This document shows, one piece after another, positions 23,747 through 53,458 of a stretch of 64,000 nt of DNA (position 1 is the first letter of the stretch; every line of letters begins with the position of its first letter). The position numbers were made by a program, and so were the translations under genes. The stretch comes from Acholoe squamosa (taxonomy: Eukaryota > Annelida > Polychaeta > Phyllodocida > Polynoidae): positions 17,942,641 to 18,006,640 of the forward strand of contig OX439044.1 in the NCBI GenBank assembly GCA_949317995.1, written 5' to 3'. The notes beneath the pieces were generated by a model. That model did no database searches. It had not been told where the DNA came from and was given only the letters and a program-made list of their open reading frames with translations.

Positions 23747-24584
23747 ATGTTAAAGCATTTGCAGATGTTGGTAGAAAAATCAGGTACTAAGATATACACT
23801 GTTGCAGCTCTGGTGGCATACGACAATCTGTCAGAACTAGAGCTAATGATGATGGTATTGAGGCCTTTGGCACTCTTGAAAATTCTGATATCCTTAGGCA
23901 CCTATCTTATGATGGCACAGTGCAAGCCCAAAAGGCATATGATTCTAAGTCTAAGAATGTGGGTAAATCTAAGGTCTCGAACAATTCATGTTATGCATTC
24001 AACAGAGCTGAGGGGTGCTTGAGGGATCCCTGCAAGTACAAACATATCTGTAGTAATTGTAACACTTCTGGACATAACAAGATTGAATGTCAAAAAGCTA
24101 GAATTGATTAGGAATACGTGGGTAGCCAATATCCTATAGCTGGTAGTAATAATGTGTGTTTTATGCTGGATCCAGTTATAGTAGGTTTGGTAGATGTTGG
24201 CTTACCTCCATATGCCACTCCAGTAAAGGGTGTGAAAGAAGTTGTAGAAACTAATAATGCTGATCCATTTCTAGCTCTCAGGCCGGGTCAGGATATCTCA
24301 AGTAACGAGATTGATGGTGAAGTTCCTCAAAAAGATTTTCCATTGGAAAATGAGAGTGATTTTGTTACTAATATTGACTCAGAGGAGTTGTATATTACAT
24401 ATGGTGGCCCAGTATAGGGTGAGAATGAACCATTATTTACCGTAAATGTCAAAGATTTACCTAGCATCAGGGTGTATGACAGTTGTATGAAAGGTGTGTG
24501 TAAGTGTGTTCATTACATTTGTGGGGAAAAATCCCAAATTTTATCATCCAGAGTGGCTTCTTTATTAACCTGGAGTTTAATTAA
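23747..24584 (+). pseudogene. Decayed retroelement gag-like region with zinc fingers
   Basis: The frame ending at the TAG at 24109 encodes a Cys/His module: CYAFNRAEGC, then CKYKHIC, then a CxxC-x4-GH-x4-C knuckle. This resembles gag proteins of DIRS-like and related retroelements. The first part lies in another frame (23747 onward). After the stop, a second stretch (24118-24417) runs on, acidic and Ser-rich. It continues past a further TAG (24415) up to the inserted element at 24585. The same strand and order as the reverse-transcriptase fragment downstream imply one element. Frameshift plus stops mean it is dead. Family assignment is by pattern only. Confidence 0.6.
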
Positions 24585-25300
24585 AAACATCCTGGGATCC
24601 CAACCCCAGCGATCTTAGTGTAGGCACATATCATTAGACCTGGCTGGTCTACCCTATGTAATGCAGTGGTTGCAGGCCTGTCCAGAATAGCTAGTCCTGG
24701 GATCACTTCACTATTCCATTTCCACCACTAAGATCACTGCAATCTTAGTGAAAGAAATGCATAGTGGTTTCACCTGAGTACAAGAGCACTTACAGGGAAC
24801 ACTCCTGATCAAAAGAGTGAATAGCCTGCTGCATACATAAAGAGGGGAGGGAGGACGTTTGCTGAGTGTCCTTGAGAGCTCTTAGGGCTACTCATGCATT
24901 AAGTGCACTGTAAGGTAATTCTTCCCTTCTCTCTCTTTGTCCTGGGGGAGGGCACAATGCTTCTAATAGGTATAAATCATACATTCATGGGAACAACTCT
25001 TGAATACTGTACGGGGGTCAACTGCACCCTGTGCTCTTTTGTTAGCCCATATGGGGACGGGGAACGATGGTATAAGCACTCTTGTGAAGAAGAGTGACTC
25101 CACAGCTATTCCTTTATTTTGGGACTCTTACCCCTGTGCCTAGTCAGTTCTTCTTGGAATAGTGTAGGAGGGCTGAGGCTAAGATCGATGCGATCTTAGT
25201 GCTGGCTAGGATATGTGAAACCAGTCAACTCTTAAGATCGCTTAATAGGATAAGGCTGATTTATTCCTAAGATCTCGGGGGTCGTGATTCCAGGATGTTT
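24585..25300. mobile_element. Non-autonomous TIR element (hAT-like MITE), 716 bp
   Basis: The ends are inverted repeats of about 33 bp: AAACATCCTGGGATCCCAAC at the left and the complement ...GATTCCAGGATGTTT at the right. Subterminal GCGATCTTAGTG / CACTAAGATCNC words occur in both orientations at about 24608, 24725-24750, 25170-25205 and 25230. The target is duplicated as TTAATTAA at left and CGAATTAA at right (6 of 8 match), compatible with an 8-bp hAT-type duplication. There is no transposase. It interrupts the retroelement coding region. Confidence 0.7.
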
Positions 25301-25903
25301 CGAATTAAGCTCCAGAAAGGTCTCATTAATATTAATAGTATTGAAGCAGATTTTTTATGGCATGGCTTTGTACAGGGTTTTAAGATTGTAGACCCAGATT
25401 GTAGTACTACTTACTACTGTAGGAATTATAAATCTATTCTTGAAGGAAGATTTTACAATGAATTTTATGTCATGTTAATGGAGGAATTAGTGTCAGGTCT
25501 AGTGTCCAAAACTGAAAATACACCTCAATGCATTCACTCACTTGGTGGAGTTGAAAAATCCAATGGCAAATTAAGACCAATAACAGATTGTAGCATGCTG
25601 GAAAAAATCTCCACTAATAACTTCATGGATACTTCTAGTTCTACTATAATGATATTGGCACTGTTACTGCTCAACTGGATAGGAATAATTGTGGTTGACT
25701 TAAAGTCAGCCTATAGAACCATAAATGTATATGGTCCTCATACAACTAAGCAGGCTTTCAGATGGGATTTTGGACATGGAGAGGAATACTATGTTAGCAA
25801 TACATTAACTTTCGGTCTTAAATGTGCACCTTACATATTCAATAGGATATCTGACTTCATTGTAGAAGTAGTGAAATTGTATGGTGTTCCCCTGGCTGAT
25901 TAA
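25301..25903 (+). pseudogene. Reverse-transcriptase fragment of a DIRS/Ngaro-like retroelement
   Basis: The frame shows ordered RT blocks: KSNGKLRPITDCS (finger), VDLKSAYRTINVYGP (palm, first catalytic Asp), the AFRWDF strand, then LTFGLKCAPYIFNRISDFI (block before the active site). The frame stops just before the expected Tyr-x-Asp-Asp motif, so the active site, RNase H and any recombinase are missing. The pattern fits tyrosine-recombinase-type retroelements better than Ty3 or BEL, but that is judgement from motif wording. No LTR or split direct repeat is found around it. Confidence 0.7.
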
Positions 25904-32254: not shown

Positions 32255-35180
32255 ATGGGTGAGTAGGCGTAGTTCCTATAGGCATACGCTATACACAGTT
32301 GTTTTCTGGATTGGGATATACACCAGTAGGGCTAGACCTATTCCATGCATGGGAATATCGTAAAATGTCTCTAAGCCTAATTGGATATAGTCAGATTTGT
32401 TCAATATGACTGCCTAATTGATATGATTAATTCGCTAATGTTGCTATCAAGGGCTCTATCGAGTTACAACAAACACATCACTTTTTGGCCAAAAAAATTA
32501 GATGAAAACACACATAATTATGCTGCTTGTTTCCAATTGAATGAGCTAAAGGCTATTTCCTAAGTTACTACGACTGCATGCAGCCAATACGATTTGAAAC
32601 CATCAAATTAGTGGCGGTGATCGTAGGTAATGCCATATGCACTCTATCAGAACTTACATATGTACCAATTACAAAGGGGTTAGCAGGGTGCTGCAAGGAT
32701 TAGTGACATTCAGTTTAGGCTTGTACTTGGCAATATAATAATGGTTTTCACTACGAACAGCAGTTGTAGCATGTTAAGAAATGACCTCCTGAGGTGTCTG
32801 GAATCATTGATGTTCAATGAAGTCATGATATTATTAGTGTAAGGAAAATATAGACCCCCTTACATTGCCTTTCGTCGGCAGTATTTATAATTCAAAGATA
32901 AGAAAGAAATAGACCATAGCATTTATACTTCCCCTACCCCTGTGCAGGAATGGGAAATGGTCGTACTTAGTTCACACCCACACATCACCTAAGGTCATTC
33001 GCTCTAGTTTCTGATGTTTTGTTCTTGTACGAATCCTTGTTCCTGACTTCTCAAAATGGATCATTTTAATCGTTTAAAGTAGATCTTTACCAATCCATAA
33101 TTCTAAAAGTGGGACAGTGTCCTCAGGATTTCCTTTTTAATTCTAAGACGGGATGGTTTCTTGTGCACCCAAACTGTTCCTCAAAGAGTCATGGCAAGTA
33201 TAGTCCAGTACCTGTCTTTGAGTGAGATGGGGTGAACGATCCAAAAGAAGTAGGGCGAATGATATAGGGCAAACACATGATCCATAACCTGCAGAGATTT
33301 GGTTTGAATACATGGAGTAGATCTATACAGCCTACGGCTATTGTGTATTATTACCATTCTATTTCTTCTCAGATGGAGGAACAGATCCTGGGAATGAAGA
33401 ACAGGCAAAGATGCAGTTTGCTGAAAGGTCTTGGCCTGGAAACAAGTTAGGAAAACCCAATGCACACTCAGATATCATCAGAACAGCAGTGAATGCCATT
33501 ACAGCTAACCAGCAAAATGTCTTCAAAGGGGTGCTAAATGTTGTGCAGGACCACCAAATAAAGAAGCTCAAGCAGAAAACTAAATTACGTTACATACTCT
33601 ATGGAGTGGGATTCGCCATTCTAAGTGTAGGAGTCATCTCACTTGAGTTTGTCTTCCCACATGCAAGAATTTACCTAGCCATGGTAGGTTTGTTTCTGTT
33701 CTTGATTTTACTATTTGCAATCACAATGCTGTATGTTCGGTTTGGAAAGTCACGATGGGTCATTAACCAAAGGCTGAGGAATGCTGCAAGGTACATTGAT
33801 ATCTGCCAGGTCTCTGAGGAATACACCAAATTAATGTTACCTACATTTGACCCAGAGGTAAAGGCAGTGTGTCATTGTCAACTGGCTGGTAGTTCTAGTG
33901 ATGGTTTTGGATTCTTCCCCTCGTTCAGTGCAAATGTATCAAAGTGTAGTTTGCTACCTGTAACACCATTCACTCAAGATGTGGATATGAATCTGTTCTA
34001 TGATGCTCTAGCCCTAAATGACAAGAACCTCTTCGATATAGGCCAACCAGGGTTCTACTGGATACAGATTAACCAGGGAGAGCTGCTCCCTGTTGGTGGT
34101 GAGTCGTTCATAAAGGACTGCCTTGTTCAGCATCCACAGATACCAGGGAAGTCATTTCTATCAGGCAGAGCTGTGTCAGAGAAGATAGGGTCCTTCATTC
34201 CAACTGATAGAAGAAATGTGTCATACAACTATCCTGCCATTACCTACAAGACTATAATTGGAGGTCCTCAAGGTAGATTCAATTTTGATGTGGATGTCGT
34301 GTTTGGCATCAATATGGGACTGTGGCCCAAAGAAGCCTGGGCGTGGCCAGAGAGAGTAAGAGATAAACTTCCTGAAGATGTCATCCAAGCTGTGCAGTCT
34401 CTGGGCTGTTATATAGTTCACAAGCACTGCAGTGGGTCAAACCTTCACCTTGACCATCGGAATCATGATCTAGACTGGAGGATAACCTTTGCAGAAGCTG
34501 AAAGTTTGCTCTTCAAGCATCATGCCTCAAAGGAGGCTCTTAAAGTCTGCTATGTCATTGTAAAATTCATCCTGAAATACCATATCAAACTCAGCAAGAA
34601 GTCATTCCCTGCACTGAAATCCTACTACCTGAAGACAGTGTTTCTGTGGTTTGCTGAGGAAGGGCACACTACCTATAACATGATTCAGGCCAAGAACAAT
34701 GGTCACCTTGCTGATTTATTTCTCTTGCTCTTTGAGAAATATCAAAAGGCTCTGGAGAAAGGACACCTTCCCCATTACTTTATGCCATCAGTGAACATCA
34801 TTGGATCTTGTACTAAACAGCAACTGAAAGCAGGCATTAAATTCATAAAGGAGCTGAGAGGAAAGCCAATCCTGCTCATAGAGAGCTTTGATGGGGCATG
34901 GCTCAGTCACAAAAGGTACACCATTATGCTGGCCTCACTCTTGGTTGTTATGTTCCTCTCACTTGGCCTCTGGGTGTTCTACAGATATAGAACAGCCGTT
35001 CTCACATCTGATGCTGATGAGAGTTTCCTTGAGTTAGTTGGGGAAAAGCACAGAGATCTTCTCGAATATGATCTCGATACAAGACTAAATTTCCTGAACT
35101 GCCTCAAGGATTGGGAGTTTGGCTTAGCTGACCTGGAGCCTGCTATAGCCTTTTGTCGCAAGAAGCTGGGGCTCAAATGA
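32255..35180 (+). CDS. Membrane-anchored cGAS-like/Mab-21 nucleotidyltransferase, copy 1
   Basis: Two exons: ATG plus G at 32255-32258 with donor GTGAGT, then 33373-35180 after acceptor TTCTTCTCAG, giving about 603 residues. The polypyrimidine tract just before 33373 and the matching exon phase in the two paralogues support this start. Predicted membrane helices lie at about 75-94, 102-124 and 517-537. The catalytic core has AGSSSDGFG (Gly174-Ser175), QDVDMNLF (Asp204, Asp206) and FNFDVDVVFG (third carboxylate Asp309). The C-terminal Mab-21 half has the WRITFAEAE, LKSYYLKTVFLWF and HYFMPSVNI blocks. No cGAS zinc-thumb insertion is seen. A soluble tail of about 65 residues follows the last helix. 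In this family, activated enzymes make cyclic dinucleotides for STING-type signalling; activity, ligand and membrane are inferred. The 1.1-kb intron is the shortest of the three copies. Confidence 0.85.
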
Positions 35181-37620
35181 ATGGGCAATAGCTGGATAAC
35201 CAACAAAATACTCTCATTATGTGGTTACTCTTGTATATATCACTTCATGTCTATTCTAGTTACTGATATCATAGATTGTGATCGAGATGCCTTACATTTG
35301 AGGAGCTTACAGGAGGGAAGTGGATATAACTATTTGCTATTTGAGGATGTCCGAGAAGAACACATGGCCATGTTAAACTTTATATAGGTTATCGTAGCAT
35401 TTACTACATTGCCAATTGATCAATTGAAGATTGTGAAATGATTAGAGAATAGAAAACGATTTTCTTCACATCGAGACTGTCTGTTGGTCTATAATGCAAA
35501 AATGCATTTGAGTGCATTATAGGCAACACAGTCAAGAAATAGTTGTCTATTGTCTTTATAAAACATTGAACATCACCTTCCAAACAATGAGTCACCCAAC
35601 TAATGTATGTTGAGACCAATTAATGGCGCTCAACTTGTTAACAGCTACCGTGACCTTGCTCAGGTGTGCACTACACTATTATAACGTACCCAAGGTCACT
35701 CCTATCGTGCAGCAGTTCAGCCATTTTAATTAAAATGATCCACAAGTAATGCCGCCTAAACATATATCACATCAATATTATCATCATTAACCTAGAATCA
35801 AAATCAAATAGAGCAGAGTTTGTTCTCCCTGATACATATATACGTGTACAAGACACGTGAGAGTAGCTATAAGTAATTCTGACCTGAACATGTTGCAGTT
35901 CCTTGAATGGACATTTTCACAACGGTCTGTCTGCGTCAAGAAAATAATGGCTTTGCTCGCAAAGTATTCACTACTACCATAATATCTGTGCTAACATTAT
36001 CGTAAATTATAGCATCGGGGAGCTTTAGTTCTTGAAATGGTCTATGTAATCTTTTTGAAGATTGGGTAATCAATAAAAAGGATCTTGTTATAATAATATG
36101 CTGTATTAAAGTTCTTATTTCCAAAGTTGATGTGCAAGAAGGATACCATAGGTCGCCATTAATTATCCCTCTATGTACCTACAGCCTATTTTAGATATTC
36201 AAGCCAAGAATCAAAGTTTAAAAAAGTTCTTATTTCATGCATGGCCTCTGTTTCCTGAATTGAAGCTATCTGAAGCGGCCTCTGAGTTTGTTCCTCATGT
36301 TATAGATATAGTGTAACGTCAGCAAAGTTCTTGTGGGAAGTCCTCTCACGGATAAATCATGAACGCCTTTTCTTCTGTATATTTGAATTATAGCTTGCCA
36401 TCCCGCCATTTATGTACACATAGAAATGGAGAATTTGCCTTCGGCCTGTTTTGATATGTCTGAGATCCAAGGTTTTTATTCACGTACCTTTACCTTAGGA
36501 GTCCAATACCAAGACCCAGTGGTTGATTTAATATTGTGTTCAGCCACCAGTGAGCGCCACTGCAATGTGGCATCTTGAACAGAGTTGAAGCCTTAAGAAT
36601 CAATCTTACACACAAAAATGAGGCACTTTTAGACATGATAAATGCTTGAATAAACCTATGCGATTTGTGTAGCTATATCACAAGGCAAAAGCAGCAATTG
36701 CATTAATACTTAAATGATAATACCATTTCAGTCTACGATACAACTAACCTCATGCATTGTAAAAGATCCTCAAACAAATAATTGCCACACTGAAAACTTA
36801 CCCCCCCTCCCCACCGTCGTATATGATATCCTCTTCATGGTTCCGTCTACCTGGTTCCTAATGTAAGTATTGTATGTAGATATAACCCACATCTTGGTAT
36901 CCTGGAGCTGCTATGATAACATTGGGGGAGGAAAAACCCTTAGTTTCACATGACCTAAGCTATGCCTATGGAGTGCAAGTTGTGACTCACGTGCACACAT
37001 GGGCCCATATGGTCTCATAGAATGAATTGATCCCACACTATAATTTAATATAGCGCAAAACACAATAGCACCCATTGGAACATGTACATTTTCTAAAAAT
37101 CACCCTATATCTAATAGAGACATCCTTCCTTCATAATCTAGACTTAAAATATGAATTGACCACGGAAATTTTGAGCACCGGACTATCGAGTAAAAACACC
37201 GTGATGCTGCCTAAACTTGCACTGAATAAAATGTAAATTCACTATTTCCAACCAAGCCCTTGAAAAAATGGGTATGCACTCTGACAAATGCCCTCCTGGT
37301 ATTTTATCTAGAGCAGCAAACATTCACCAACATGTGTACTGGTTTTATATTTATTGGCATTATTTTTCAACATGGTTATTGACCATTCACTGTGCCTGCA
37401 GTATTCACTTCTGACCACAATCGTATATGACTTCGGGTTTTCGGCGGGATTTCCCTCACTGAGACCATGTGTATATCCTGTCCCTGTTCACTAGGTCAGG
37501 CTAAATTTGGGGTCATTATACATGTTCGCCTCACCCTCACCGACCTCTATATGTAGTCACAGAGAATCACAAATAGAGACAACCGGCCAACAAACCAGTC
37601 GCTTCAACATTGAAGCTGGA
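35181..37620. other. Intergenic spacer between copies 1 and 2
   Basis: 2.4 kb, AT-rich, no exon recognised. ATTAAA- and AATAAA-like words occur at about 35746 and 36069, but no clear poly(A) site for copy 1 can be chosen. Confidence 0.45.
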
Positions 37621-37814
37621 CGATTAGCATAAGGATAACACAGTAAAGAGAAAAAGCCAGCCAACAGACCATATTCTTTCTGGTCAAAGCTGAACAACAC
37701 ATCCCGGTTACTGGAGAGAGGGATACTTCATTTATACATGTATCACAGATATGTGAACTGTAAGGTGGCTTGGCTACCCTCCGAGGTGTCAGGTCTGACT
37801 TGGAAACATCAAAA
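37620..37814 (+). promoter_or_regulatory. 5' UTR/promoter block shared by copies 2 and 3
   Basis: TGTAAGGTGGCTTGG and its surroundings (37741-37814) match 44353-44429 upstream of copy 3, and a weaker match (GCCAGCCAACAGACCA versus GACCGACCAACAGACGA) continues further out. Conservation here but not in the introns suggests transcribed leader or promoter-proximal sequence. The corresponding block is not evident in front of copy 1. Confidence 0.55.
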
Positions 37815-40800
37815 ATGGGTAAGTCTCGAATTCTTTGTTCATTTGCTAAGTTCTATTCATAGTTGAGTGGTTGCTAGCTGGGTTGGGTGGTACACTTTCG
37901 CCCCCCTCCCGACCCGGGGGCCCCAATTTAAAAGACTAGCCCCTAGCATTTGCCCCCCAGCCACCCCCCCCCACACACACACACATACAAACATTCGACG
38001 CTACTCTTAACCCCATGCCACCTTAGAAGGCTTACTATTTATTTTGTCATCCACAAACCTATTCCGATTTTCCCTATCATTTTTAACACTTTTTTCTACA
38101 ATATATTCCATGACTTGTGCCAAGGGCTGAATCATAGAGTATGCTATGCTTTTTTAGGTATCTTTTGACCCCCCTTTTTCTTTTATTATTTTAGAACCGT
38201 ACCCCGCCCCCCCCGCTGTGTGATATACTTTATGGATGGATCGCCCCCAAAAGGTCCAGATTTTGAAGCTGTAATTTATAGGTATCTTGTAGTTGCAGTG
38301 AAACAATGGTACTTACAAATGTACAAATCCCGGGGGGCCACTCACCAAACTATTGAATACCATGTGTGAACATGATTTCAAGGGAAAGGGGCCCTTTTTG
38401 GGCCCTAGGCATTGGCCCTCGAGGGCTCTTGATTAGGGGTGCTTTTAGGCAATTTTGAAGGAAAAGGGGGTAATTTCTAGACCACATATGCTCTGAGCTC
38501 TAACGTTTTTTTTATGTCAAAATGGGTTAATTTAGGTAGATGTCATAGTGTTTTTTTTTTTTTTTATGAATGTCATTTTCTACGGTTAGGTGGGTATTTT
38601 TGTAGGGTCGTCTTTTATTAGGGTATTGTATTTGTCATTTTCCCTTGATTAAGGGTCAAATCTATGAATATTTCTACCCGTGAATAGGGTACCAAATCCA
38701 AGGGCTTGTTCACACATAGAAACTATAGAACAGATAGGCAGTGCCCCCCCCCCCCCAGAGTACAAATACACTGGAGTAGTATCCGTTAGAGGACATAGCA
38801 ATGCCATGATGCCATCTAGTGAGAAACCTATGAACTGACTTTCAGAGAAGTAGGAGGGACGGGTCGTGGTACTGGCATCAGTATCTTACACAACGTTTTC
38901 TAAATTCACCCCATGTTCTGCCTAGGTGAACAGATGTTATACTCAGGATTTTGAATGAGAACAGAATTTAGTCGAGTCAGCTCTCACAGTTTGTCTTTTT
39001 TACAACTAAATATATGCTCCAGTCTAATTGATGATATTCCACTCTAGGATTCCACTGCATGGCTATCACTGTCGGTCCCTGCACTCAGCTACAAAAGAGA
39101 ACGTCACCTGTTTTCTCACTTAAGATTCACTGTCCTTATCTAGAGGCCCTTCAGATACAACCCAATATGATAAGTATAATTATATTCGCACCACCAAGAG
39201 CTTAAATGTTGTGTTATGTGCAGAGCAGAGCAGAGCCTTTAGTATAGCCTTTTACCACAGTGGGCATGCAGAACACAAGACTCAATATCTTTTATCGACT
39301 CTATTAGGCCTAAAAAAGCTTGGGTTTCTGGCTGCTCTAGCTATTTAACTTTTTTATTTGGATCCCTGATTTGGTAGGTCGATCTTACAATAAGAATCTA
39401 AATACGAATGAGGTCAAATAAAGGGAAATGGAAGTTCTAAGCATATGAAAGCCATTTAGCATTTTTAAGTAACAGCTGTATGGTGGTGCTCTGAGGGTCA
39501 ATACAGAAACCCTCAGCGTACAGAGTCTCTGGAAGTATTGTGATTAAATTTCCTATGTATTATTATACATTTCTCATACCAAAAGCAATGGTACACTTTA
39601 CCAGAAAATGGATTTGGAAACAATTTTGAACAGTAGAAGGTGAACCCAATCAGTAGAAACCGTAATTTAGGAACCCAATGGTTAGTGTTTGCAAACCTTT
39701 AGTGATAACAGTCTTTTTTTCTATTCTTTTGAAGCTGGAACAGTGAATTATGGCTATGAAGCCCTAGCTGAAGAAGAAGACACAGAAATACGGTTGAGTG
39801 GAAGAGATTCGCAAGGGACCAACTCACACTCAGACCTCCTCCGAACAGCAGTTAATGCCATCACAGCCAATCAGGAAAATGTATTTACAGGGGTTCTAGA
39901 TGTTGTGCAAGACCACCACAGACAGAAACTCAAACAGAAAACATTACTCTGCTATGGAGTATATGCACTTGTTTTCGCAGGCCTTGTTGCAGGGGTTGGT
40001 AGCCTTATGTTTGTATCAATAAAGGCTGGAATAGTATTCATAGCACTCATTGGTCTGTCAGTGTTGGCGATTCTGATCTTTCTTCTTATGTTGGTGTATG
40101 TTTGCTTTGGGAAGTCACATAAGGTCATTAACTGGAGACTGAAACATGCTGCAAGATACATCAATGTCTGTCAGGTATCTGAAGAATACACCAAATTAAT
40201 GCTCCCAAACTTTAGTCATGAGGTGCAGCAAGTGTGCCACTGTCAATTGGCTGGTAGTTCTGGAGACAGTTTTGGATTCTTCCCCTCCTTCAGTGCCAAT
40301 GTGTCACCGTGTAGCAGAAAACCAATACCTTTCACTCAGGATGTAGATATGAACCTGTTCTATGATGCTTTAGTACTTAGGGAGGACAACCTCATTGATA
40401 TAGGCCAGCCAGGATTCTGTTGGGTACAAATCAACCAAGATGAATTGCTGACAGATGTTGGTGAGTCGTTCATAAAGGACTGCCTTGTTCCACATCCACA
40501 AATACCAGGGATGTTATTTCTATCAGGCAGAGCTGTGTCAGAGAAGATAGGGTCCTTCATTCCAACTGATAGAAGGAATGTATCCTACAACTATCCTGCC
40601 ATTACCTACAAGACTGAAATCAAAGGCCCTCAAGGTAGATTCAATTTTGATGTTGATGTTGTGTTTGGCATCAAATTGAGCTTGTGGCCTGATGTTGCTG
40701 AGGACTGGCCAGAAAGAGTAAGAGATAAACTTCCTGGAAATGTCATCCAATCTATACAATCATTGGGATGCTACATTGTTCACAAGCACTGCAGTGGGTC

Positions 40801-41551
40801 AGACTTTCACCTCAATCATAAGAACCATGCCTTGGACTGGAGAATTACATTTGCTGAAGCTGAAAGTTTGCTCTTCAAGTACCATGCCTCAAAGGAGGCC
40901 CTTAAGATTTGTTATATCATTTTGAAATTTACCTTGAAAAACTACAGCAATGTCTCAAAGAGGTCTCTCCCTGCACTGAAATCCTACCACCTAAAGACAG
41001 TGTTTCTGTGGTTTGCTGAGGAAGGACATACTACCTATGACCTGGTAGAGGCAAAGAACAATGGCAACCTTGCCAATCTGTTCCTACTGCTGATTGAGAA
41101 ATACGAAGATGTCCTTGAGAGAGGCCAACTTCCCCACTATTTTATGCCTTCAGTGAACGTCATTGCATCCTATTCCAAGGAGGAGTTGTCAGCAGCAGTT
41201 AAAATCCTAAAGAGACTTAGGCGCAGGCCCATCCTCACCATAGAAGCATTTGACCATGCGTGGATCAATGAGAAGAGGTACACTATAATGATGCTCTCAT
41301 TGTTCATTTTCATAGTCATTGCAACAGCTCTCCGCGCGGCCTTTCCTACCTCAGACTTCTCGAATTCAGATGAATCTTTCCTTGATCTAGTGGGAGAGAA
41401 AAATAGGGATCTTCTGAAATACAACTCTGATACTCGGCTGAAGTTCCTCCGCTGTCTCCAGGAGAAGTACCACGAGTTGGCTGAAAAGTTCAGCACAGCT
41501 GACCCAGAACCCGCCATCTTATATTGTCGGCAGAAGCTAGGACTGAAATAA
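37815..41551 (+). CDS. Membrane-anchored cGAS-like/Mab-21 nucleotidyltransferase, copy 2
   Basis: Exon 1 is ATG plus G at 37815-37818 followed by a perfect GTAAGT donor. Exon 2 is 39735-41551 after TTCTTTTGAAG, giving about 606 residues starting MAGTVNYGYEA. The open frame extends upstream to 39689, but that stretch is the intron's pyrimidine tract. The acidic N-terminus is followed by the conserved helix LLRTAVNAITANQENVFTG. Membrane helices lie at about 72-95, 98-125 and 517-534. The nucleotidyltransferase signature is Gly175-Ser176, Asp204/Asp206 and Asp309. The C-terminal blocks WRITFAEAE and LKSYHLKTVFLWF are intact. The tail after the last helix (SDESFLDLVGEKNRDLL...) matches copy 1. 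It is the best preserved of the three. Expected role: intracellular nucleic-acid or other danger sensing with cyclic-dinucleotide output, by analogy only. It could instead be a non-catalytic Mab-21 protein. Confidence 0.87.
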
Positions 41552-41722
41552 TGGCACAATATACAGACACATGACAGGATTCATATCATGTACTAATATG
41601 CATCAAATGTTTAACATTAATATTCGTCTAGATGGCTAAGTGCAATTTCTCAGGAACATATATCTGGACATATCTGAAATTAGCTCATCCACCATATGCA
41701 TGTAATATGGTAAAGTTATGAC

Positions 41723-41728
41723 AATAAA
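41723..41728 (+). terminator. Candidate poly(A) signal of copy 2
   Basis: AATAAA lies 172 bp downstream of the copy 2 stop codon, a normal 3' UTR distance. No downstream element is tested. Confidence 0.45.
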
Positions 41729-42971
41729 TTTTGAAAAGGCTTGACTAATTGTGGACAGATGAGGGGAAAGGATCCTCCGAGGTAAAATGTGAAATTTAAG
41801 ATTGATGTTACCAGCTTAAAATGAGGTATAACCCATGAATATAGCCCTTCTAGTCTTGGAGATATTGCTTCACGAATATGGGATGACATGACTGCATCAA
41901 AACAACCAATAAGCTCTATCATTCATTGGTTTAATTGAATCAGGCATCTAATTAGCATAATGGTTTGAATAATTAATTACAAAATGACCATCTCTTTCCA
42001 TACATTTGGGCATAGCTTTGGATCTAGAAATGCTATCTTTATGCTTTTTCAGCATATGAATCTCCATGAATCATTCTATCTGTCGACATTATTTTTTTCC
42101 TATTTGGAGTATGATTTTGGTTACCATGGCAATACATTTCTCTTAGAACCCTTATTTAGGCCTTGTTTTGGATTCAAAGCGTTCCATTTACATTCCAATT
42201 GTATAGGAAGTGTCAAGAAATAGAACGTTTTTGAGAAAACCATCTTTTTCAGTGTAAAAAAGTACATAATAACAATTTTTTTGTCTATTTTTCACATTTT
42301 TAGCCTCTGTAGCTCCCCTAGTGGCCAAATCCAGTACTAAAAATCCCACAGGGAGGGCCCTTTCCCTTCATTTGCCCACGATTTATAAAGGGTTAATGTA
42401 TACAATTTCTGTATTCTACACGACTTCTGTATCCTGGAAGGGAAAAGATGATAATTAATAAAATTTGTAATTAGACCATGGATAGACCTCCCTCCTATAT
42501 GTGACTATGAATGAAGCCAAAATATCCAACAAACAGTGAATAAACAAATTTTATAAACGTCATAATACGTATCTAAACCGAGAAGTATTAACATTGCATA
42601 GAAACGTTTCTGGACAAAAGTCATTCCAACCCGAAAATTATGTTGTCTCATTCTGTCTCCCCGTCTTCTCCCTCTTCCTGTCTATCCAGTCGATCTGACG
42701 GCACATTTAAACATAATCCTAGTGCACACGTTTATTGACATACTATGTACATAGTTTATGCTAATTGAACACCTGGCAATAGATCTACACACGAAGTTCA
42801 CAGACCGATTTAATACACAGAAATAGTCGAGTCTCAAACATGGGACAAACATAATCATTGTTTTGTTCCCACCGCTCCCTATGCAGTTATAGTGGTCAGA
42901 ATTTCAGCCAAACTTATGCAGTGGAACCAAGGCATAAGTAAGCTCTAATAGTTTCGCCTCCCTGGTCCCTA
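41729..42971. other. Intergenic spacer after copy 2
   Basis: AT-rich. No exon, RNA gene or clear repeat recognised. Confidence 0.45.
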
Positions 42972-42975
42972 TTAA

Positions 42976-43172
42976 CCCTTTGAGGTCCTGACCATGGGGA
43001 CGGCCCCTGAAAAAAGTATAGCTCCTAGAGGACGAGCTTATTTTCAATTCCTAAACAAATCCTATATAATGGGCGTCAACTATAGTCGACGCTAGGCCCA
43101 CCATGGTGTCGACTATAGTCAATGCTAGGCCTACCAAGGTGTCGACTATAGTCGATCCTAGCCCTCAATGGG
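42976..43172. mobile_element. TTAA-flanked MITE with internal palindromic repeats, 197 bp
   Basis: TTAA at 42972-42975 and 43173-43176 flanks ends CCCTTTGAGG and CCTCAATGGG, which are inverted repeats with one mismatch: the piggyBac-type pattern. Inside, about three copies of a 42-bp unit each carry the palindrome TCGACTATAGTCGA or a variant, with CTAGGCCYACCAWGGTG between. No coding content. Confidence 0.65.
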
Positions 43173-43176
43173 TTAA

Positions 43177-44200
43177 ATGTGTTAATGTGTGCAATGCAGA
43201 TATAACCCACATCCGTATCCTGCCCATCTTCTCGTCCTCTCCGTCCTCCAGAACGACTGTGACTTCAGGATGAAGCTGTCGCAACATTGGAGCCACATAT
43301 ATTGTTGTAAAATGCCTGTACGTAAATTGATCTATATTATTCTACTCCAGTTATCTGATATTCACTATGAAATCCTGCCCACCTAACAGAAATACGTTAC
43401 TTTAACTCAGAATAAGGTTCCTAAAGTTATCTAACGCTTAAAACCTTTTGACATGTGTGCCCACTTTCTATTTGCTTCAATAAATTTCTCATATATATCT
43501 ATGACCATCTAATCGATATTTGATAACGGCCAATGTGTCCCCTCATTATCAATATTACTTAAAAGAAATCACCCTTATTAGGATACTCTGTATGGTTGAC
43601 AAAATGACACTAATTACCATCAGAATAATATCTTATTAACTTCAGAGAGAAAAATGCTGTACAGTCTAACAAGATCATCTCAAGGACTGAATATTTAATA
43701 GTACTAACCCACACCTCATATGAACCAAGACATATTGAAATATACCTTAATACCCCGCATATAAGACGTGGCTTGTATGAGGATGGACCGCTACTGCGTC
43801 TTATAAAGCATCAGCATAAGTTGGCCTTACGCCTTTATAGGTTTCTGATATCATATCATTGTATAAGAGTGTTTCAAATCAATCCCAGGTGCATCAAATA
43901 GATTTTCCTGTAACTCCCTTCCTTTGACTTGTACGCGGGTGCGCCTTATGCGTGGGTTATTTCGGTATAGGGAGGTTTCTTGTTTGCTATGTGTGCGCGG
44001 CCATCTTAGTCCTGATCTCGGAATCTCTCGCAAGATTATGTAGGTACCATACTTGCAAGTAGCATGATGACATGCCAGGAACAAGCGAGGTTGCTAGACC
44101 AGAGCAGGAAATCACTGATGTCAGCATGCAAGTGCTCCTCTCGGGAACAAGTCCTGTTCCGTAAGGTCGCTATATATACGGTATACACCTCGGTCACTAG
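43177..44200. other. Intergenic spacer before copy 3
   Basis: No gene recognised. Short open frames overlap on both strands without motif. Confidence 0.45.
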
Positions 44201-44352
44201 GTCATATATAGTGAACGTACGGTTTTGGTTTCGCAAACATCATCCTGACCTAGTCAAACAGTATCACAAAGAGATGCGACCGACCAACAGACGATGAGGC
44301 TGAACTATACCATAATTATCTTCACTATATATAGGGGATACGTTATTGGTAT

Positions 44353-44429
44353 ATGTGTTATAGATATGTAAACTGTAAGGTGGCTTGGTTATCCTCTGAG
44401 CTGAGACATTTAGCTTGAAAACGACCATA
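44353..44429 (+). promoter_or_regulatory. Copy 3 leader block homologous to the copy 2 leader
   Basis: GATATGTAAACTGTAAGGTG and the following GGCTTGGTTATCCTCTGAG correspond position by position to 37748-37790. The homology runs to the start codon and stops there, where the copy 3 sequence turns into a G run and a tandem repeat. Confidence 0.55.
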
Positions 44430-47400
44430 ATGGGGGGTCTTGATGGGGGGTCCACATGTCACATGTCAATTTCAAGGAAAGGCCATGTCACATGTCACTA
44501 ACCTTTTCCTTCCCTATGTCCTTGTCACTAAGCTCCATGTCACATGTCGATTTTAAGGAAATGCCATGTCACATGTCACTAAATTTCTATTTCCCCATGT
44601 CCTTGTCACTAAGCTTCATGTCACATCGATTTTAAGAAAAGGCCATGTCACCCTGTCGAATTTAGGGGTCTAGACCCATATAATGGGTAAGTGATTGACT
44701 TTTCCTTTACTGATTGTGTTAACATTTTAATGAGAAAGCAGTCGCTCAATCACTTGATTTAATGTAAGTCCTCTCCCTCCTTTCCTCGTTTGAAGGGATT
44801 GTAGCAATAAAATTAATGAGACTGAGTAAGCCCAGTCCAAGATACCCTTATTTGAAATATAGTCACCAAATATTTTCAACTAATAGTAACAGCCCACACC
44901 ACCATCTGCTGAGTCCTGAGACATTGTATGTACTGTAATGTAGTGGTATACGGTCACTGTGAGTCCCTTTACACCAGAAATTCCTCAAGCCATGCTTATT
45001 TTGCCTGCAATTCATTTAGTAACATGATTTCGTCACCCCTACAAGTAGCAATATATCTCTAGATGCCATATCAATGCAATCTAGGATGCCATGACGCCAC
45101 AAAAGTCGTAAAATAGTTCCTGATGTGAAACTGTTCGGCACCCTTTTATAACGTATACCAGTATGTGTGTCTGTGCATCATTTGAAGCTGAAATAACACT
45201 AGGACTATAAAGTCAAAATTCCACCACAGTGGAACGTGGGTCTACGCCACATTCCATGAACTTGATGAAGGCATCCATCCCTTGAGGGTGAAAGGCCGGC
45301 TGAATCGACTGTGTGGAGATCATTGCAAGTCTCAATACTCCCTACTCTGTTTTGGCAAATTTCCAAACTAGAACATTAACCCCTGTTGATCATTTACAAC
45401 TCAAATTTCCTTCAGTGCATGCAGACCTGTTTTGGTGTTTGCTTCATCACCAAAATCTAAATTCGGGGATGACTGCTCTGATCCCAGATGCATTGAAAAC
45501 ATGGAAGGTCCGAAACTAGTCAGCGGTGACAATACTGACAGTACAGAGTCATCATATTGACGACTCAGGTCGTCAGGATGATGACCTACAGTCGTCATTT
45601 TGACTACCTAAAGTTGTAGTTTTAGGTATCATCAACTTGAGGACCTAAACATGGTCACCGCTGACTAGTTTCGGATCTTCCATGTTTTCAGTGTGTATCC
45701 CCCAGGTTCTAATAGATGGTGCCACCTCTCAGGGACAAGACCGATAGATCGACACTTTAGGCACTTGGGCATATTTCTCAATGGTAAACGATCAACTTTT
45801 TGTACTTGGGCCAAGGGAAATTCTATTTCAGAGAGGGGGACTCTTTTGATGGTGGTAGACTAATTTCTGTAATTAGCAGTTGTAAATAGTTTAACATACT
45901 GTTGCCGGCATGTAAATAATTTTGTGTTATGCAATATTAAGATGATCCCCAAACGAGGTAAAATTATCTGTATTTTTATAATCTATATAGAGTATATTGG
46001 TTCCACTGCGGGGTCGGTTTGGCGAATTTTCGTTAATCCGACGATTTATCATATTGCAAAGTTATAGCAAAACTTCGCCCCAACCGATGGTAGTGGAAGC
46101 AGTGCGTCTTCCACTATATAGCCGATTTTCGGGGCCATCCACAAATGACGTCATGCTAGCAGAAGGAGCGGGGGGTGGGTCAGGCTCAGCATGACGGAAT
46201 TAATTTTCCACATACTTTCAACATTGCAAAATTGGCAAAAATAACCGGACAATGGGGGAGGGGGGATCAAAAATGGTCAAACTTTGCATGACGTCATTTA
46301 TGGATTGCCCCTTACAATTGAGAAACACCCCAGTCAACAAAAAACGTTGCAAAACGTTTCAGAACGTTTCCCTATGGCTCCTTATCATGGCAAAACGTTT
46401 TAAAACGTTAAAACTAGGACGTGCCACTTAGTCTGGGATCCTGACCGGAAATACCTAGCTGCTAAATCCTGTTGGGTAAGGATATTTTTTATGCCCCATA
46501 TAAGGTCTAGGCAGTGTTCAAAAAGGATTTTTTTGCCAAATATTGTGCACAATTTTGACCCAATCTTCAATCTGCAACAGTGGAGGACCCACTCAATTCT
46601 ACAGCAGTGGAGGTAATACCTTCAAACCTGGTTATCAAAACCCAGGTACATCATTTGCAAATACAAGTCATGTTTTTAAAAAGTCTGTCTCTACCCATTC
46701 TTAGCTGGAGCGGTGAATTATGGCTATGATGGTGATATCGATGAAGATACAGCAACATGGTTGAGTGGAAGAGATTTTCCAGAGACCACGCCAACGAGAT
46801 CAGATTCAGACCTCCTTCAAGCAGCAGTGAATATCATTACAGCCAATCAGGAAAATGTCTTTACAGGTGTACTCGATGTTGTTCAGGAGCACCACAGACA
46901 GAAACTCAAACTGAAAACTATGATCTGGTACCTACTGTGTGGACTTGTATTTTTTAGACTTGCTGCAGTATTATGTGGCTTGGTATTGTGGTACTCCATA
47001 CCAGTTGGGTTAGCACTTGTGGCTCTCTTATTGCTGTTAATATTGGCAATTGTTAGCTTACTCCTTAGCTATTGTATATGTTGCCGCTGTAAGTCACCCA
47101 GGGTCATCAACTGGAAACTGATGCATGCTGCAAGGTACGTCACTGTCTGTCAGGTGTCTGAGGAATGTACCCAATTAATGTTACCAAACCTCAGCCCTGA
47201 GGTGCAGGAGGTGTGCCACTGTCAACTAGCTGGTAGTTCTGGAGACAGCTTTGGATTCTTCCCCTCTTACAGTGCCAATGTGTCAAAGTGTAGCACAGGA
47301 GTTGTACCTTTCAGACAAGATGTAGATATGAACTTGTTCTATGATGCTTTAGTCTTAATGGAGCAGAACCTTGTGGACATAGGCCACCCAGGATTCTGTT

Positions 47401-48341
47401 GGGTAGAGATTAACCGGGGAGATCTGATGACAGGTGTGGGGGAGTTATTCTTAAACAACTGCCTTGTCCACCATCCTCAAATTCCAGGGAAGCCATATCT
47501 ATCAGGCAGACTTGTGTCAGAGAAGATAGGGTCCTTTATTCCAACTGACAGAAGGAATGTATCCTACAATTATCCTGCCATTACCTACAAGACTGTGATT
47601 GAAGGTCCTCAAGGTAGATTCAATTTTGATGTGGATGTCGTGTTTGGCATTAAAATGAAATTGTGGCCAGAAGTGGCTAGGTTATGGCCAGACAGAGTAA
47701 GAGATAAACTTCCTGAAGATGTCATCCAAGCTGTGCAGTCTCTGGGCTGTTATATAGTTCACAAGCACTGCAGTGGTTCAGAATTCATCTTTGAACATCA
47801 GGATCATGACCTAGACTGGAGGATTACCTTTGCAGAAGCTGAAAGTTTGCTTTTCAAGCACCATGCCTCAAAGGAGGCCCTCAAGGTTTGTTACATCATT
47901 GTAAAGTTTGTCTTGAAAACCTACATCAAAAACTCTAGTAAGTCTCTCCCTGAACTGAAATCCTACCACCTGAAGACAGTGTTTCTTTGGTTTGCTGAGG
48001 AGGGACATACTTCCTATGACTTGGTGGAAACCAAGAACAATGTCAATCTTGCCAATTTGTTTCTACTGCTCATCGAGAAATATGAAGATGCCCTTAGAAA
48101 AGGAGAACTTCCCCACTACTTTATGCCATCAGTAAACATTATTGTATCCTACACCAAGGAAGAGATGGCAGCAGGCATTAAAGCCTTCAAGAGACTAAGG
48201 CGGTGGCCCATCCCCACCATAGAAGCCTTTGACCAGACATGGATCAATCAGACGAAGAACACCATAATGGCGCTCTCAATGCTAATAATACCAGTCCTTT
48301 TATTTTGTGTCAAAGAAGCCCTTCAGTCTTTATACCAATAG
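44430..48341 (+). CDS. Membrane-anchored cGAS-like/Mab-21 protein, copy 3, C-terminally truncated
   Basis: Exon 2 is 46705-48341 after acceptor CCATTCTTAG. The homologous first exon is ATG at 44430. The usual GTAAGT is replaced by a G run, and the nearest in-phase donor is the weak GTCTTG at 44437, which would give ATG GGG G and a protein of about 547 residues (MGAGAVNYGYDGD...). Two N-terminal membrane segments lie near 72-130, ending in a CICCRC cluster. Gly179-Ser180, Asp208/Asp210 and Asp313 are all present, and the Mab-21 C-half is complete. The third helix ends at SLYQ and a stop, so the tail of about 65 residues found in copies 1 and 2 is absent, and the DNA after the stop shows no trace of it. 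The open frame is otherwise intact over 1.6 kb, so recent or ongoing function is plausible. The start exon is the least certain part. Confidence 0.75.
44444..44665. repeat. Tandem repeat in intron 1 of copy 3, about 98-bp unit
   Basis: CCATGTCACATGTCACTAA, a TTTCCTTCCCTATGTCCTTG-type stretch, then GTCACTAAGCTCCATGTCAC and a TCGATTTTAAGGAAA stretch repeat about 2.3 times. The array begins within 20 bp of the expected splice donor. Confidence 0.8.
45495..45689. mobile_element. Palindromic MITE in the copy 3 intron, 195 bp
   Basis: 36-bp terminal inverted repeats with a single mismatch: GAAAACATGGAAGGTCCGAA... at 45495-45530 and its complement at 45654-45689. The middle contains smaller GACGACTCAGGTCGTC-type hairpins. 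No coding content; superfamily unassigned. Confidence 0.8.
46131..46311. mobile_element. TIR element with CRE-like palindromes, 181 bp
   Basis: The ends GGGGCCATCCACAAATGACG... and ...CGTCATTTATGGATTGCCCC match at 24 of 26 positions as inverted repeats. Both arms contain TGACGTCA, the consensus of a CREB/ATF site. It lies about 400 bp before exon 2 of copy 3. No target duplication is obvious. Confidence 0.7.
46328..46437. mobile_element. Possible small MITE with ACGTTT repeats
   Basis: Starts CCCAGTCAACAAAAAACGTT and ends AGTCTGGG. AAAACGTTT-like palindromic words recur five times. The start resembles the CCCAGTAAAY end of the element at 10505-11192. The inverted repeat is short, so confidence is limited. 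Confidence 0.35.
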
Positions 48342-50950: not shown

Positions 50951-53458
50951 GATGGCGCCGAGACAAGTACAAGGATCATCCCAAAGTGGGAAAGCAAAAG
51001 CCTGTAAATCAAGAAATATACAAAACAACCTGCGAAAGAAGAGTCTGTACTAGAGAGTCAGGCAACCAAGAGTCCGGGTGAGGAAAAGAAAACACCAGTT
51101 AAACGTCACACTCGTCGACGTCAGGGAGCTCAGGTGGGGTAAAGCTCCTGCACTCAATTTGAGGAAGATGAACATCATGCTGAAAAGGAGGGAAACGAAG
51201 GGCATAAAAAGGTATGCTCTACTACATGCCAGTAAACAATATGTTATTCATCTATCAAAATGATCCTAATTTACACTGTAGGCAGTTACCATTTAGCTCG
51301 GGGGGGTTGTTTTACAATAAAAAATCTTGCTTTTCTGGTCCTTTTGACCTTTAGGTGCAAAGATTTTGTGTTAATTTATTTTTGTCAAGGTGTTTATTAG
51401 TTGGTGGGGTCAGGTGGATCGCTCGGCTTTTTTGTTCTTATTATTCTAAGTAGTACAAATTTTTATAGTAAGGCATATTCCTCTTCCTTTCATTTTACAC
51501 TGTCATGGATGACTAATTTTAATATAACTTATTTATTTTCCTTCAGGAAACCGGCTTTAAGCATCCAAATAATCCTGCACGCCCTCCTAAGCCCTCAGTT
51601 GAAGATGATGACGATGACGATAGCATGTCTGACAGTGAGGTAGAGGAGGCACGGCGGAAGTTGGCCAAATTTAATCATCGTCAAGCAAAAAAACAGTTGA
51701 ACGATTCTCGCAATTTAGAGCAACAGGTGCAAAGTCCACGTAGACTTGGAAGTGGAGACGACTATTTAGATAAAGACTCAAAGGATCGTACCCCAACTAA
51801 CAGTTCTTTAGGGGGGGATAACATTGCCCATGATAACAAAGAATATGATTTTGACTCTCCCAGCCGATACTTATGGAAAGAAGGCAAAGAAGAAGATCTA
51901 TGTAGATTGTGGGCGTAGGAGAAGCATCTTTACATGACTCGACACCCTCAACACCGTTACCCCAACAAGAGGGATACGACTATACAATGTTTTGCTGCCA
52001 TTCTAAATATCAGACGTAAGTTTAAATTTTTTTTCCAGTTACAGGTAGTTTTAACTCACATGTATGATATGGCAGAGACAAAGAGACTTGAAATCAAATT
52101 CTTGACCCTCTCTTTTAGGAAAAGTTATTTCTTTTCTGTGTCCATCATAAGTTATTCAAATACTAATGTCTTCCCTCTCATTATGTTTCAGCCAAGGCTA
52201 TAACCACCCGAATGCAGAGGCTCAGAAGGCAGTTCACAAAAATCAACAAGTTTCAGGAAGGAAGGAAAACACTGACTGACAACATGAAACACTGAGATTA
52301 TGTGCTTTTTTGAGGAATGCTGATGCCTCACAGCCAACTGTCACAAACTACAAATAGCCAGCCAATCCAAAGAATGCACCTCAAACAGTGACAGATGATG
52401 AAGCTGACGATGAAATCGAGTCCATAGAGCCGACTCCAAAAAAGCCCAACTACAAGTTCAATCTGTCTACACTTAAACGTCGGTCGCGATTTATATACGT
52501 GAGTAATTATTCTGACTCCAAAGTCAAACCTTAAGTGAAAAGGGGAAACAAGGTTATACCTGAAAATAACCTACTTCTTTTTCCTTATCTGATTGGGTAA
52601 TCATAGTACATATATGTTGAGCGATTGTTTATATCATTTTTGTCATTGTCAGTGTAGTAGGCATCACGGAACTTTGAAAACCCAATTAATCCATAAGTAA
52701 ATGATTTGTCCTCCCCCCTTCAAAAAAATATAATTGATATAAACCAGGTTAATTTCTTCTTTGTCTAGTCCAGAGTGTTGACGTGCATTAATTTTGTTTT
52801 TTTGCAGACAAAGAAAGCGGCCGCAGCTTCAAAGTGCTTGGACATGAGCCCCATAGCGGATGTTGATCTGACAGGGGATGACGGCGGTCAGGAATTACCT
52901 GGAGGAAATAAACTAGTGAAACTGATTCGGTCAGATCCACCCGAGAAAAGAAATCTTGAATCGTAAAATTATCCCCCTTGATGAAAACATAGACCTGATG
53001 ATGACTTTGATCTCATTTCATCTCCAGCCAAAAAGAAAAAGACAATGAATGTACAATAAGAGACCTCTACTTCAGCCACTTCCAATCCTAAAAACAGTGG
53101 ATGTTCCAAGAAAAGTAGTGGGGGCCGTACTAAATAGCAGATTGTAGCGGACAAGAAAACCAAACCAGCTACCATGAACTACCCTGTCCCAAAGAAAAAG
53201 GAAGAAAAGGCTGAAGGAGGTAAATTGGCCGATCAAACTCGGTACAATGTGAAATACAGTAAAGTAGATAACATGGAATGGTTCGAGAAGCAAGGATCAG
53301 CATACCGTGCTACCCAAGAGAAGCAGAGGGCTGCAGATAAAAAAAATCTAGCTTCTTCTCTCTTAAACAAAACAAATGAAATGAAGCAGGCAGTTTCTGG
53401 ATTGTCTGAACTGGGCCAGCAAATGGCCAATAAAAACTTGGCCGATGATGATTGCTAG
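50951..53458 (+). pseudogene. Harbinger accessory (Myb/SANT-like) gene, degraded
   Basis: Coding traces lie on the + strand from ATGGCGCCGAGACAAG at 50951. They include a Lys/Arg-rich start, an acidic exon after TTCCTTCAG (51550 on, with an Asp run then SDSEVEEARRKLAKFNHRQ), a basic TTRMQRLRRQFTK stretch near 52200, an exon at about 52808-52965 after a TTTTTTTGCAG acceptor (DVDLTGDDGG), and a C-terminal helical exon to 53458 (VDNMEWFEKQGSAYRATQEK...). Several frame changes and stops interrupt the reading. In Harbinger elements the second protein binds DNA and brings the transposase to the ends. A SANT helix is not clearly readable, so that identity rests on position. Confidence 0.5.

What the first reader, a model, noticed from the sequence alone, without database searches (positions are those of the whole stretch)
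32255..48341. Tandem cluster of three membrane-anchored cGAS-like enzymes
Three same-strand paralogues combine a Mab-21/cGAS fold that keeps the Gly-Ser, Asp-x-Asp and third-Asp signature with two predicted membrane helices before the catalytic core and one after it. Vertebrate cGAS is soluble. A catalytically competent, multi-pass cGAS-like receptor would be an uncommon architecture and a candidate membrane-tethered innate sensor. Seen: motifs and hydrophobic segments. Known: the metal-binding triad of cGAS-like receptors. Inferred: activity and localisation.
Basis: partly seen in the sequence, partly recalled or inferred. Interest (0 to 1): 0.9.

Follow-up and report, generated by a model that had tools for sequence, protein, structure and literature searches.

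The report
Membrane-tethered cGAS-like enzyme gene trio
An animal genome carries three neighbouring copies of a gene for a cGAS-related protein that appears to be anchored in a membrane by three helices and keeps the residues expected for making a nucleotide signal; whether it is an active enzyme or an immune sensor is untested.

Summary
Three same-strand genes share one structure: a bare ATGG coding start, a phase-1 intron, one long exon. The proteins are 62-70% identical and carry both Pfam Mab-21 domains above cut-off in 3 of 3. Their best solved relatives are two chains deposited as cGAS-like receptor 1. The core is under purifying selection (omega 0.18-0.24, 3 of 3 pairs). Two hydrophobic segments precede the core and one follows it in 3 of 3. 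Gly-Ser, D-V-D and a third Asp are present, with cGAS-like donor-site residues, but both spacers (27-28 and 100 residues) exceed the published cGLR motif (8-20, 50-90), so the strict motif fails in 3 of 3. Two AlphaFold2 runs gave no usable model: the metal site is not shown in space. Membrane-anchored relatives of this fold are known (ITPRIP; MiD49/51). I rate it a new variant of a known kind: a three-helix, membrane-anchored, possibly catalytic member of the animal cGLR/Mab-21 superfamily. Activity, location and immune role are inferred.

The parts
32255..32258 (+). gene A, candidate first coding exon (ATG + 1 base, donor GTGAGT)
   Evidence: one of 7 phase-1 candidates in the stretch scanned; chosen because bare ATGG + GT[AG]AGT occurs upstream of all three genes; inferred, no transcript data
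33373..35180 (+). gene A, main coding exon; joined model 603 aa (P0001 is the part from ATG 33411, 589 aa)
33594..33650 (+). gene A hydrophobic segment 1 (P0001 62-80)
   Evidence: KD 1.96; unweighted Hessa sum +2.35, i.e. marginal
33675..33731 (+). gene A hydrophobic segment 2 (P0001 89-107)
   Evidence: KD 2.87
33888..33893 (+). gene A Gly-Ser (160-161)
33978..33986 (+). gene A Asp-Val-Asp (190-192)
34293..34295 (+). gene A third Asp (295)
34923..34979 (+). gene A hydrophobic segment 3 (P0001 505-523)
   Evidence: KD 2.54
37720..37819 (+). 100-base conserved element upstream of gene B that runs into its ATGG; 75% identical to 44335-44434 upstream of C; probable promoter/5'UTR
   Evidence: not detected upstream of A above shuffled controls
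37815..37818 (+). gene B, candidate first coding exon (ATGG, donor GTAAGT)
   Evidence: one of 5 candidates listed
39735..41551 (+). gene B, main coding exon; joined model 606 aa (P0002 numbering starts at 39689, inside the intron)
39965..40021 (+). gene B hydrophobic segment 1 (P0002 93-111)
   Evidence: KD 2.25
40031..40087 (+). gene B hydrophobic segment 2 (P0002 115-133)
   Evidence: KD 3.25
40253..40258 (+). gene B Gly-Ser (189-190)
40340..40348 (+). gene B Asp-Val-Asp (218-220)
40655..40657 (+). gene B third Asp (323)
41285..41341 (+). gene B hydrophobic segment 3 (P0002 533-551)
   Evidence: KD 2.33
41345..41548 (+). gene B C-terminal helical, charged tail (P0002 553-620), shared with A, absent from C
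   Evidence: the only stretch of the model with block pLDDT 68-86; no solved relative with E below 0.027
44335..44434 (+). conserved element upstream of gene C (partner of 37720-37819)
44455..44679 (+). 81-base tandem repeat lying between the conserved element and the candidate ATGG of gene C
44683..44686 (+). gene C, candidate first coding exon (ATGG, donor GTAAGT)
   Evidence: one of 8 candidates listed
46705..48341 (+). gene C, main coding exon; joined model 546 aa (P0003 numbering starts at 46713)
46932..46988 (+). gene C hydrophobic segment 1 (P0003 74-92)
   Evidence: KD 2.53
47010..47066 (+). gene C hydrophobic segment 2 (P0003 100-118)
   Evidence: KD 3.36
47232..47237 (+). gene C Gly-Ser (174-175)
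47319..47327 (+). gene C Asp-Val-Asp (203-205)
47634..47636 (+). gene C third Asp (308)
48264..48320 (+). gene C hydrophobic segment 3 (P0003 518-536)
   Evidence: KD 2.11; unweighted Hessa sum +3.41, i.e. marginal (holds a Pro, a Lys and a Glu)

Best explanation
Three tandem animal genes encode a membrane-anchored nucleotidyltransferase-fold protein of the cGLR/Mab-21 superfamily. Shown: the genes, their common exon structure as a model, the Mab-21 domains, the three hydrophobic segments and the acidic triad in sequence. Inferred: an N-terminal cytosolic amphipathic stretch, two membrane helices forming a hairpin, a cytosolic catalytic core, a third membrane helix, and in A and B a short tail on the far side of the membrane. 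Inferred further: the core binds a nucleoside triphosphate with Mg2+ through D-V-D and the third Asp, rearranges its Gly-Ser loop on a signal received at the membrane, and makes a nucleotide product (most likely a cyclic dinucleotide) near membrane-resident receptors such as STING. The duplicates may answer different signals, since the membrane segments diverge faster than the core.
For: Both Mab-21 Pfam domains above cut-off in 3 of 3. Best solved relatives in every search with a full protein or core profile are 8gjy and 8gjw, 'cGAS-like receptor 1': E 1.2e-17 and 2.3e-9 (P0002), 1.7e-15 and 7.8e-8 (P0001), 1.1e-18 and 2.3e-12 (P0003). Third Asp pairs with the V-D of both cGLR1 chains; D-V-D pairs with E-F-D of 8gjw in phmmer and in hhalign, probability 97.4, 262 columns. 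In HMMER's alignment to a cGAS chain the W-R of W-R-x-[ST]-F, the Glu seven residues on, a Lys (P0002 K417) and S-Y-x-x-K-T line up; PMC4897736 (passages) names human cGAS R376, E383, K414, Y436 and K439 as nucleotide-site residues, and reports Gln in MAB21L1 where cGAS has D319, whereas these three keep Asp. Core omega 0.18-0.24 with bootstrap limits below 0.35 in 3 of 3 pairs. Segments differ at 54-88% of positions between copies yet stay hydrophobic, against 23-27% in the core, as expected of lipid-facing helices and not of buried core helices. Flank charges put the core on the positive (cytosolic) side.
Against: Strict cGLR motif fails in 3 of 3: Gly-Ser to D-V-D 27-28 residues (8-20 allowed), D-V-D to third Asp 100 (50-90 allowed), and Ala instead of Gln/Thr before Gly-Ser. 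The N-terminal 201 residues of the core, searched alone, found no relative (P0002 and P0003 tested), and the Pfam Mab-21 match starts after D-V-D in 3 of 3. MAFFT places 8gjw's E-F-D opposite F-Y-D and not D-V-D, and hhalign's per-residue confidence there is low. Two AlphaFold2 runs gave mean pLDDT 42.7 and 35.3. Segment 1 of A and segment 3 of C are marginal on the unweighted Hessa sum. No relative was found in the collections scanned, which hold viruses, prokaryotes and phages, so no conservation beyond the trio could be tested.
Confidence: 0.45

Rival explanations
1. A membrane-anchored Mab-21-fold pseudoenzyme or nucleotide-gated scaffold: it binds a nucleotide (or nothing) and works by recruiting partners at a membrane, as MiD51 and perhaps ITPRIP do; the acidic residues are kept for metal/nucleotide binding or by descent.
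For: Membrane-anchored relatives known by function are not shown to be enzymes: ITPRIP at the outer nuclear membrane, reported to bind IP3 receptors (PMC6550788, passages); MiD51 needs ADP as cofactor (title in the reference list seen). Spacing of the motif departs from the active cGLRs.
Against: Acidic triad and donor-site residues invariant in 3 of 3 under purifying selection; best solved relatives are cGLR1 chains, while MID49 scores only E 2.1-2.3.
Confidence: 0.35
2. Invertebrate members of the ITPRIP family proper, i.e. the orthologue group of a known vertebrate membrane protein.
For: Membrane anchor at the N-terminal side plus Mab-21 fold, as in ITPRIP (PMC6550788, passages).
Against: Three hydrophobic segments here against one membrane segment in ITPRIP/L1/L2 by the paper's account; no ITPRIP sequence was on hand for a tree, so this stays open.
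Confidence: 0.15
3. A soluble cGLR in which the hydrophobic stretches are buried core helices or prediction noise.
For: Only hydropathy was available; single segments above the threshold arise in about half of residue shuffles; segment 1 of A and 3 of C are marginal.
Against: Three segments in 3 of 3 proteins, three or more in only 9, 4 and 9 of 500 shuffles; KD up to 3.36; all three lie outside the Mab-21 domains; they diverge in sequence but stay hydrophobic.
Confidence: 0.05

Closest known systems
cGAS-like receptors (cGLRs), e.g. the chains 8gjy and 8gjw deposited as cGAS-like receptor 1
   Same: Collinear match through the third Asp and the helical lobe, in 8gjw from the D-V-D onward; tandem/cluster expansion is also reported for cGLRs of insects and bivalves (PMC9980059, section 5)
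   Different: Membrane segments on both sides of the core; motif spacers longer than the published definition. That paper's main text names TPR, ankyrin and multi-cGLR fusions and uses 'transmembrane' only for STING; its supplementary Table S2 was not seen
ITPRIP / ITPRIPL1 / ITPRIPL2
   Same: Mab-21 nucleotidyltransferase fold with a membrane segment; epitope on the cytosolic side of the outer nuclear membrane (PMC6550788, passages)
   Different: One membrane segment against three here; relationship by sequence not tested
MiD49/MiD51
   Same: Membrane-anchored (recalled) paralogues within the cGLR superfamily (PMC10732462, passages)
   Different: Hit only at E 2.1-2.3 over 42-43 profile positions; single N-terminal anchor (recalled)
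MAB21L1/L2 and MB21D2
   Same: Same domain pair; E 2.8e-6 and 3.5e-6 to P0002
   Different: MAB21L1 has Gln in place of the third Asp (PMC4897736, passages); no membrane segments known to me (recalled)

Membership tests
cGLR/Mab-21 superfamily (Pfam PF03281 + PF20266) | Mab-21 nucleotidyltransferase and Mab-21_C domains above curated cut-off | tested here: met
   32.9/53.4, 36.9/54.0, 35.7/52.6 bits against 24.1, 3 of 3 proteins; the Mab-21 match covers only the part after D-V-D
cGLR enzymes as defined by Li et al. (PMC9980059) | active-site motif h[QT]GS [X8-20] [DE]h[DE]h [X50-90] h[DE]h | tested here: not met
   residues present, but A instead of Q/T, spacers 27-28 and 100, 0 of 3 proteins match
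cGLR enzymes as defined by Li et al. (PMC9980059) | homology across both the NTase core and the C-terminal helix bundle | tested here: met
   weakest in the first 60-100 residues of the core
cGLR enzymes as defined by Li et al. (PMC9980059) | predicted direct structural homology by AlphaFold2 | tested here: inconclusive
   mean pLDDT 42.7 and 35.3 with 3-row alignments; no fold search was run on such models
cGLR enzymes as defined by Li et al. (PMC9980059) | synthesis of a nucleotide second messenger | not testable with these tools
   needs purified protein
ITPRIP family | membrane segment plus Mab-21 fold | tested here: met
   by hydropathy
ITPRIP family | grouping with ITPRIP sequences in a tree | not tested
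   no ITPRIP sequence on hand; no eukaryote collection in the tools
MiD49/51 | significant sequence match | tested here: not met
   E 2.1 and 2.3

The most novel reading that the evidence does not exclude
A family of multi-pass transmembrane cGAS-like synthases: the enzyme sits in the membrane with two helices before and one after a cytosolic active core, so that sensing at or across the membrane (or release from it) directly gates second-messenger synthesis, and tandem copies with fast-changing membrane parts and tails read different signals.
Probability: 0.3. Interest if true: 0.8.

Novelty: new variant of a known kind. Interest (0 to 1): 0.5.

Why it matters
cGAS and the characterised cGLRs are treated as soluble receptors of nucleic acid, while STING is the membrane partner. 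A cGLR-type core that is itself built into a membrane and keeps the metal-binding residues would join sensing, membrane identity and second-messenger production in one protein and would suggest ligands other than free cytosolic nucleic acid. It would also give a test case for whether membrane-anchored Mab-21-fold proteins, so far known as adaptors, descend from or include active enzymes.

Tried and rejected
Structure prediction of the full protein and of the core alone, each with the three paralogues as the only alignment rows, failed (mean pLDDT 42.7, pTM 0.33; 35.3, pTM 0.28). I ran no fold search because a low-confidence model gives meaningless matches. The search for more relatives to deepen the alignment found none: viral contigs 41 pattern matches, 0 confirmed; genome contigs 118 pattern matches, 0 confirmed; phages no match. 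These collections do not hold animal genomes, so this says nothing on how widespread the family is.

NCBIfam and PADLOC scans of the three proteins gave nothing relevant. The C-terminal tail of B alone matched nothing convincing among solved structures (best E 0.027, COP9 subunit 3). Searching the first 201 residues of the core alone gave only chance hits for P0002 and P0003 (P0001 not tried).

Considered and rejected: pseudogenes (long intact frames and core omega well below 1 in 3 of 3 pairs); bacterial or viral origin (intron structure and the Mab-21 family; inference); starting the proteins at the TTG/GTG that the ORF list used (in-frame Met in B first at 107 and in C at 70, inside or just before the first hydrophobic segment), which is why an upstream start exon was sought. 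The regex label 'K(414)' marks P0002 K413; HMMER's alignment puts K417 opposite the cGAS Lys; both are invariant in the trio.

Paper searches for a membrane-spanning cGLR: (open-licence PMC only). In what I read of the papers opened I saw no description of this architecture; 14 of 15 papers found were listed and most of these were not opened, and no supplement was read, so this is not proof of absence from print.
Full report
What is there. The window holds three long + strand reading frames of 589, 620 and 542 codons (33411-35180, 39689-41551, 46713-48341), far beyond the 206-codon maximum in 20 shuffles of the window. No whole genome is held for the window. The introns and the animal gene family say it is from an animal; I could not name the species. 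The proteins P0001, P0002 and P0003 are 69% (1-2), 62% (1-3) and 70% (2-3) identical over aligned residues.

Gene structure. In B and C no usable in-frame Met precedes the first hydrophobic segment (first Met at 107 and 70), so a start must lie upstream. Each long exon begins at a homologous AG acceptor in the same phase, and upstream of each lies a bare ATGG followed by GTGAGT or GTAAGT: 32255 (A), 37815 (B), 44683 (C). Joined, they give proteins of 603, 606 and 546 residues starting MDGGT, MAGTV and MAGAV, with introns of 1114, 1916 and 2018 bases. In B the ATGG lies at the end of a 100-base element that is 75% identical to one upstream of C; in C an 81-base tandem repeat stands between that element and the ATGG. 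No counterpart upstream of A beats shuffled controls.

Family. Pfam Mab-21 and Mab-21_C pass their cut-offs in 3 of 3 proteins, but the Mab-21 match covers only the part after the D-V-D. Among solved structures the two best relatives in all five searches with a full protein or a profile that includes the whole core are 8gjy and 8gjw, deposited as cGAS-like receptor 1. MB21D2, MAB21L1 and cGAS follow. The three proteins are thus members of the animal cGLR/Mab-21 superfamily.

Active site. Gly-Ser, Asp-Val-Asp and a third Asp are invariant in the trio. The third Asp pairs with the Asp of both cGLR1 chains. D-V-D pairs with E-F-D of 8gjw in phmmer and hhalign, but MAFFT on four sequences puts E-F-D opposite F-Y-D, and the first 201 residues of the core alone find no relative. 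The placement of D-V-D is therefore probable, not proven. Against a cGAS chain HMMER lines up W-R, the Glu seven residues on, a Lys and S-Y-x-x-K-T; PMC4897736 (passages) describes the human cGAS counterparts as nucleotide-site residues. In 8gjy the Arg is Cys, so this residue is not universal among cGLRs. MAB21L1 has Gln for the third Asp (same paper); these proteins keep Asp.

The motif published for cGLR enzymes (PMC9980059, passages and section 5) is not met by 0 of 3 exceptions: none of the 3 proteins matches, because Ala precedes Gly-Ser and the spacers are 27-28 and 100 residues instead of 8-20 and 50-90. By that definition they would not have been counted as cGLRs, which may be why such proteins escape cGLR lists (inference). 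Insertions in loops need not abolish activity, but this lowers confidence.

Membrane segments. Each protein has three 19-residue windows with Kyte-Doolittle 1.96-3.36, two before and one after the core. Three or more such windows arise in 9, 4 and 9 of 500 residue shuffles. The unweighted Hessa sum is favourable or near zero for 7 of 9 segments and unfavourable for segment 1 of A (+2.35) and segment 3 of C (+3.41). Between copies the segments are 12-46% identical against 73-77% in the core, yet remain hydrophobic, which fits lipid-facing helices better than buried core helices. Positive charges flank the N side of segment 1 and the C side of segment 2, which suggests N-terminus and core in the cytosol and, with a third crossing, the C-terminal tail of A and B on the far side. 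The tail is helical in the otherwise failed model (block pLDDT 68-86) and absent from C.

Selection. Core omega is 0.18, 0.24 and 0.24 with 95% bootstrap limits 0.135-0.250, 0.176-0.342 and 0.164-0.333. The membrane segments 1-2 run at 0.33, 0.64 and 0.72 and segment 3 plus tail at 0.63 and 0.99 in the two pairs with C, the third pair being saturated at synonymous sites. The core is thus the conserved part in all three copies, including tail-less C.

Mechanism. I think the most likely reading (0.45) is a membrane-anchored nucleotidyltransferase that makes a nucleotide signal at a membrane; the nearest rival (0.35) is a nucleotide-gated or inactive scaffold like MiD51 or ITPRIP. Nothing here decides between them. 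No evidence of immune function was found; it rests on the relationship to cGLRs, among which active enzymes respond to double-stranded nucleic acid (PMC9980059, section 5).

Known or new. Membrane-anchored proteins of this fold exist: ITPRIP at the outer nuclear membrane (PMC6550788, passages), and MiD49/51, listed with ITPRIP as paralogues in the cGLR superfamily (PMC10732462, passages). The cGLR survey's main text reports that 87% of cGLRs stand alone and that others are fused to TPR, ankyrin or further cGLR domains, and uses 'transmembrane' twice, both for STING. Clusters and large expansions are known, so the tandem array itself is ordinary. The unusual part is the two-plus-one membrane architecture around a core with the full acidic set: a new variant of a known kind.

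Noticed in passing
25271-25903 (+), near 23726-24417: Reverse transcriptase fragment (Pfam RVT_1, E 3.2e-9) next to a further open stretch: remains of a retrotransposon upstream of the trio.
   Followed up: partly
56526-56900 (-): DDE superfamily endonuclease fragment (Pfam DDE_Tnp_4, E 2e-8), remains of a DNA transposon.
   Followed up: partly
51523-51918 and 53138-53458 (+): Two exon-like open stretches with acidic/lysine-rich protein-like sequence downstream of gene C; no Pfam match at E up to 0.1. Possibly one unrelated downstream gene.
   Followed up: no
45491-45533 and 45651-45693: Inverted repeat of 43-base arms, 93% complementary, 117 bases apart, inside the intron of gene C; probably a small mobile element.
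   Followed up: no
3486-3931: Long GGGCA-based minisatellite of nested periods 5, 16, 21, 26, 42 and 106.
   Followed up: no
41345-41548 and the matching tail of gene A: Charged helical C-terminal tail of about 65 residues kept in A and B, missing in C; no solved relative with E below 0.027 for the B tail.
   Followed up: partly
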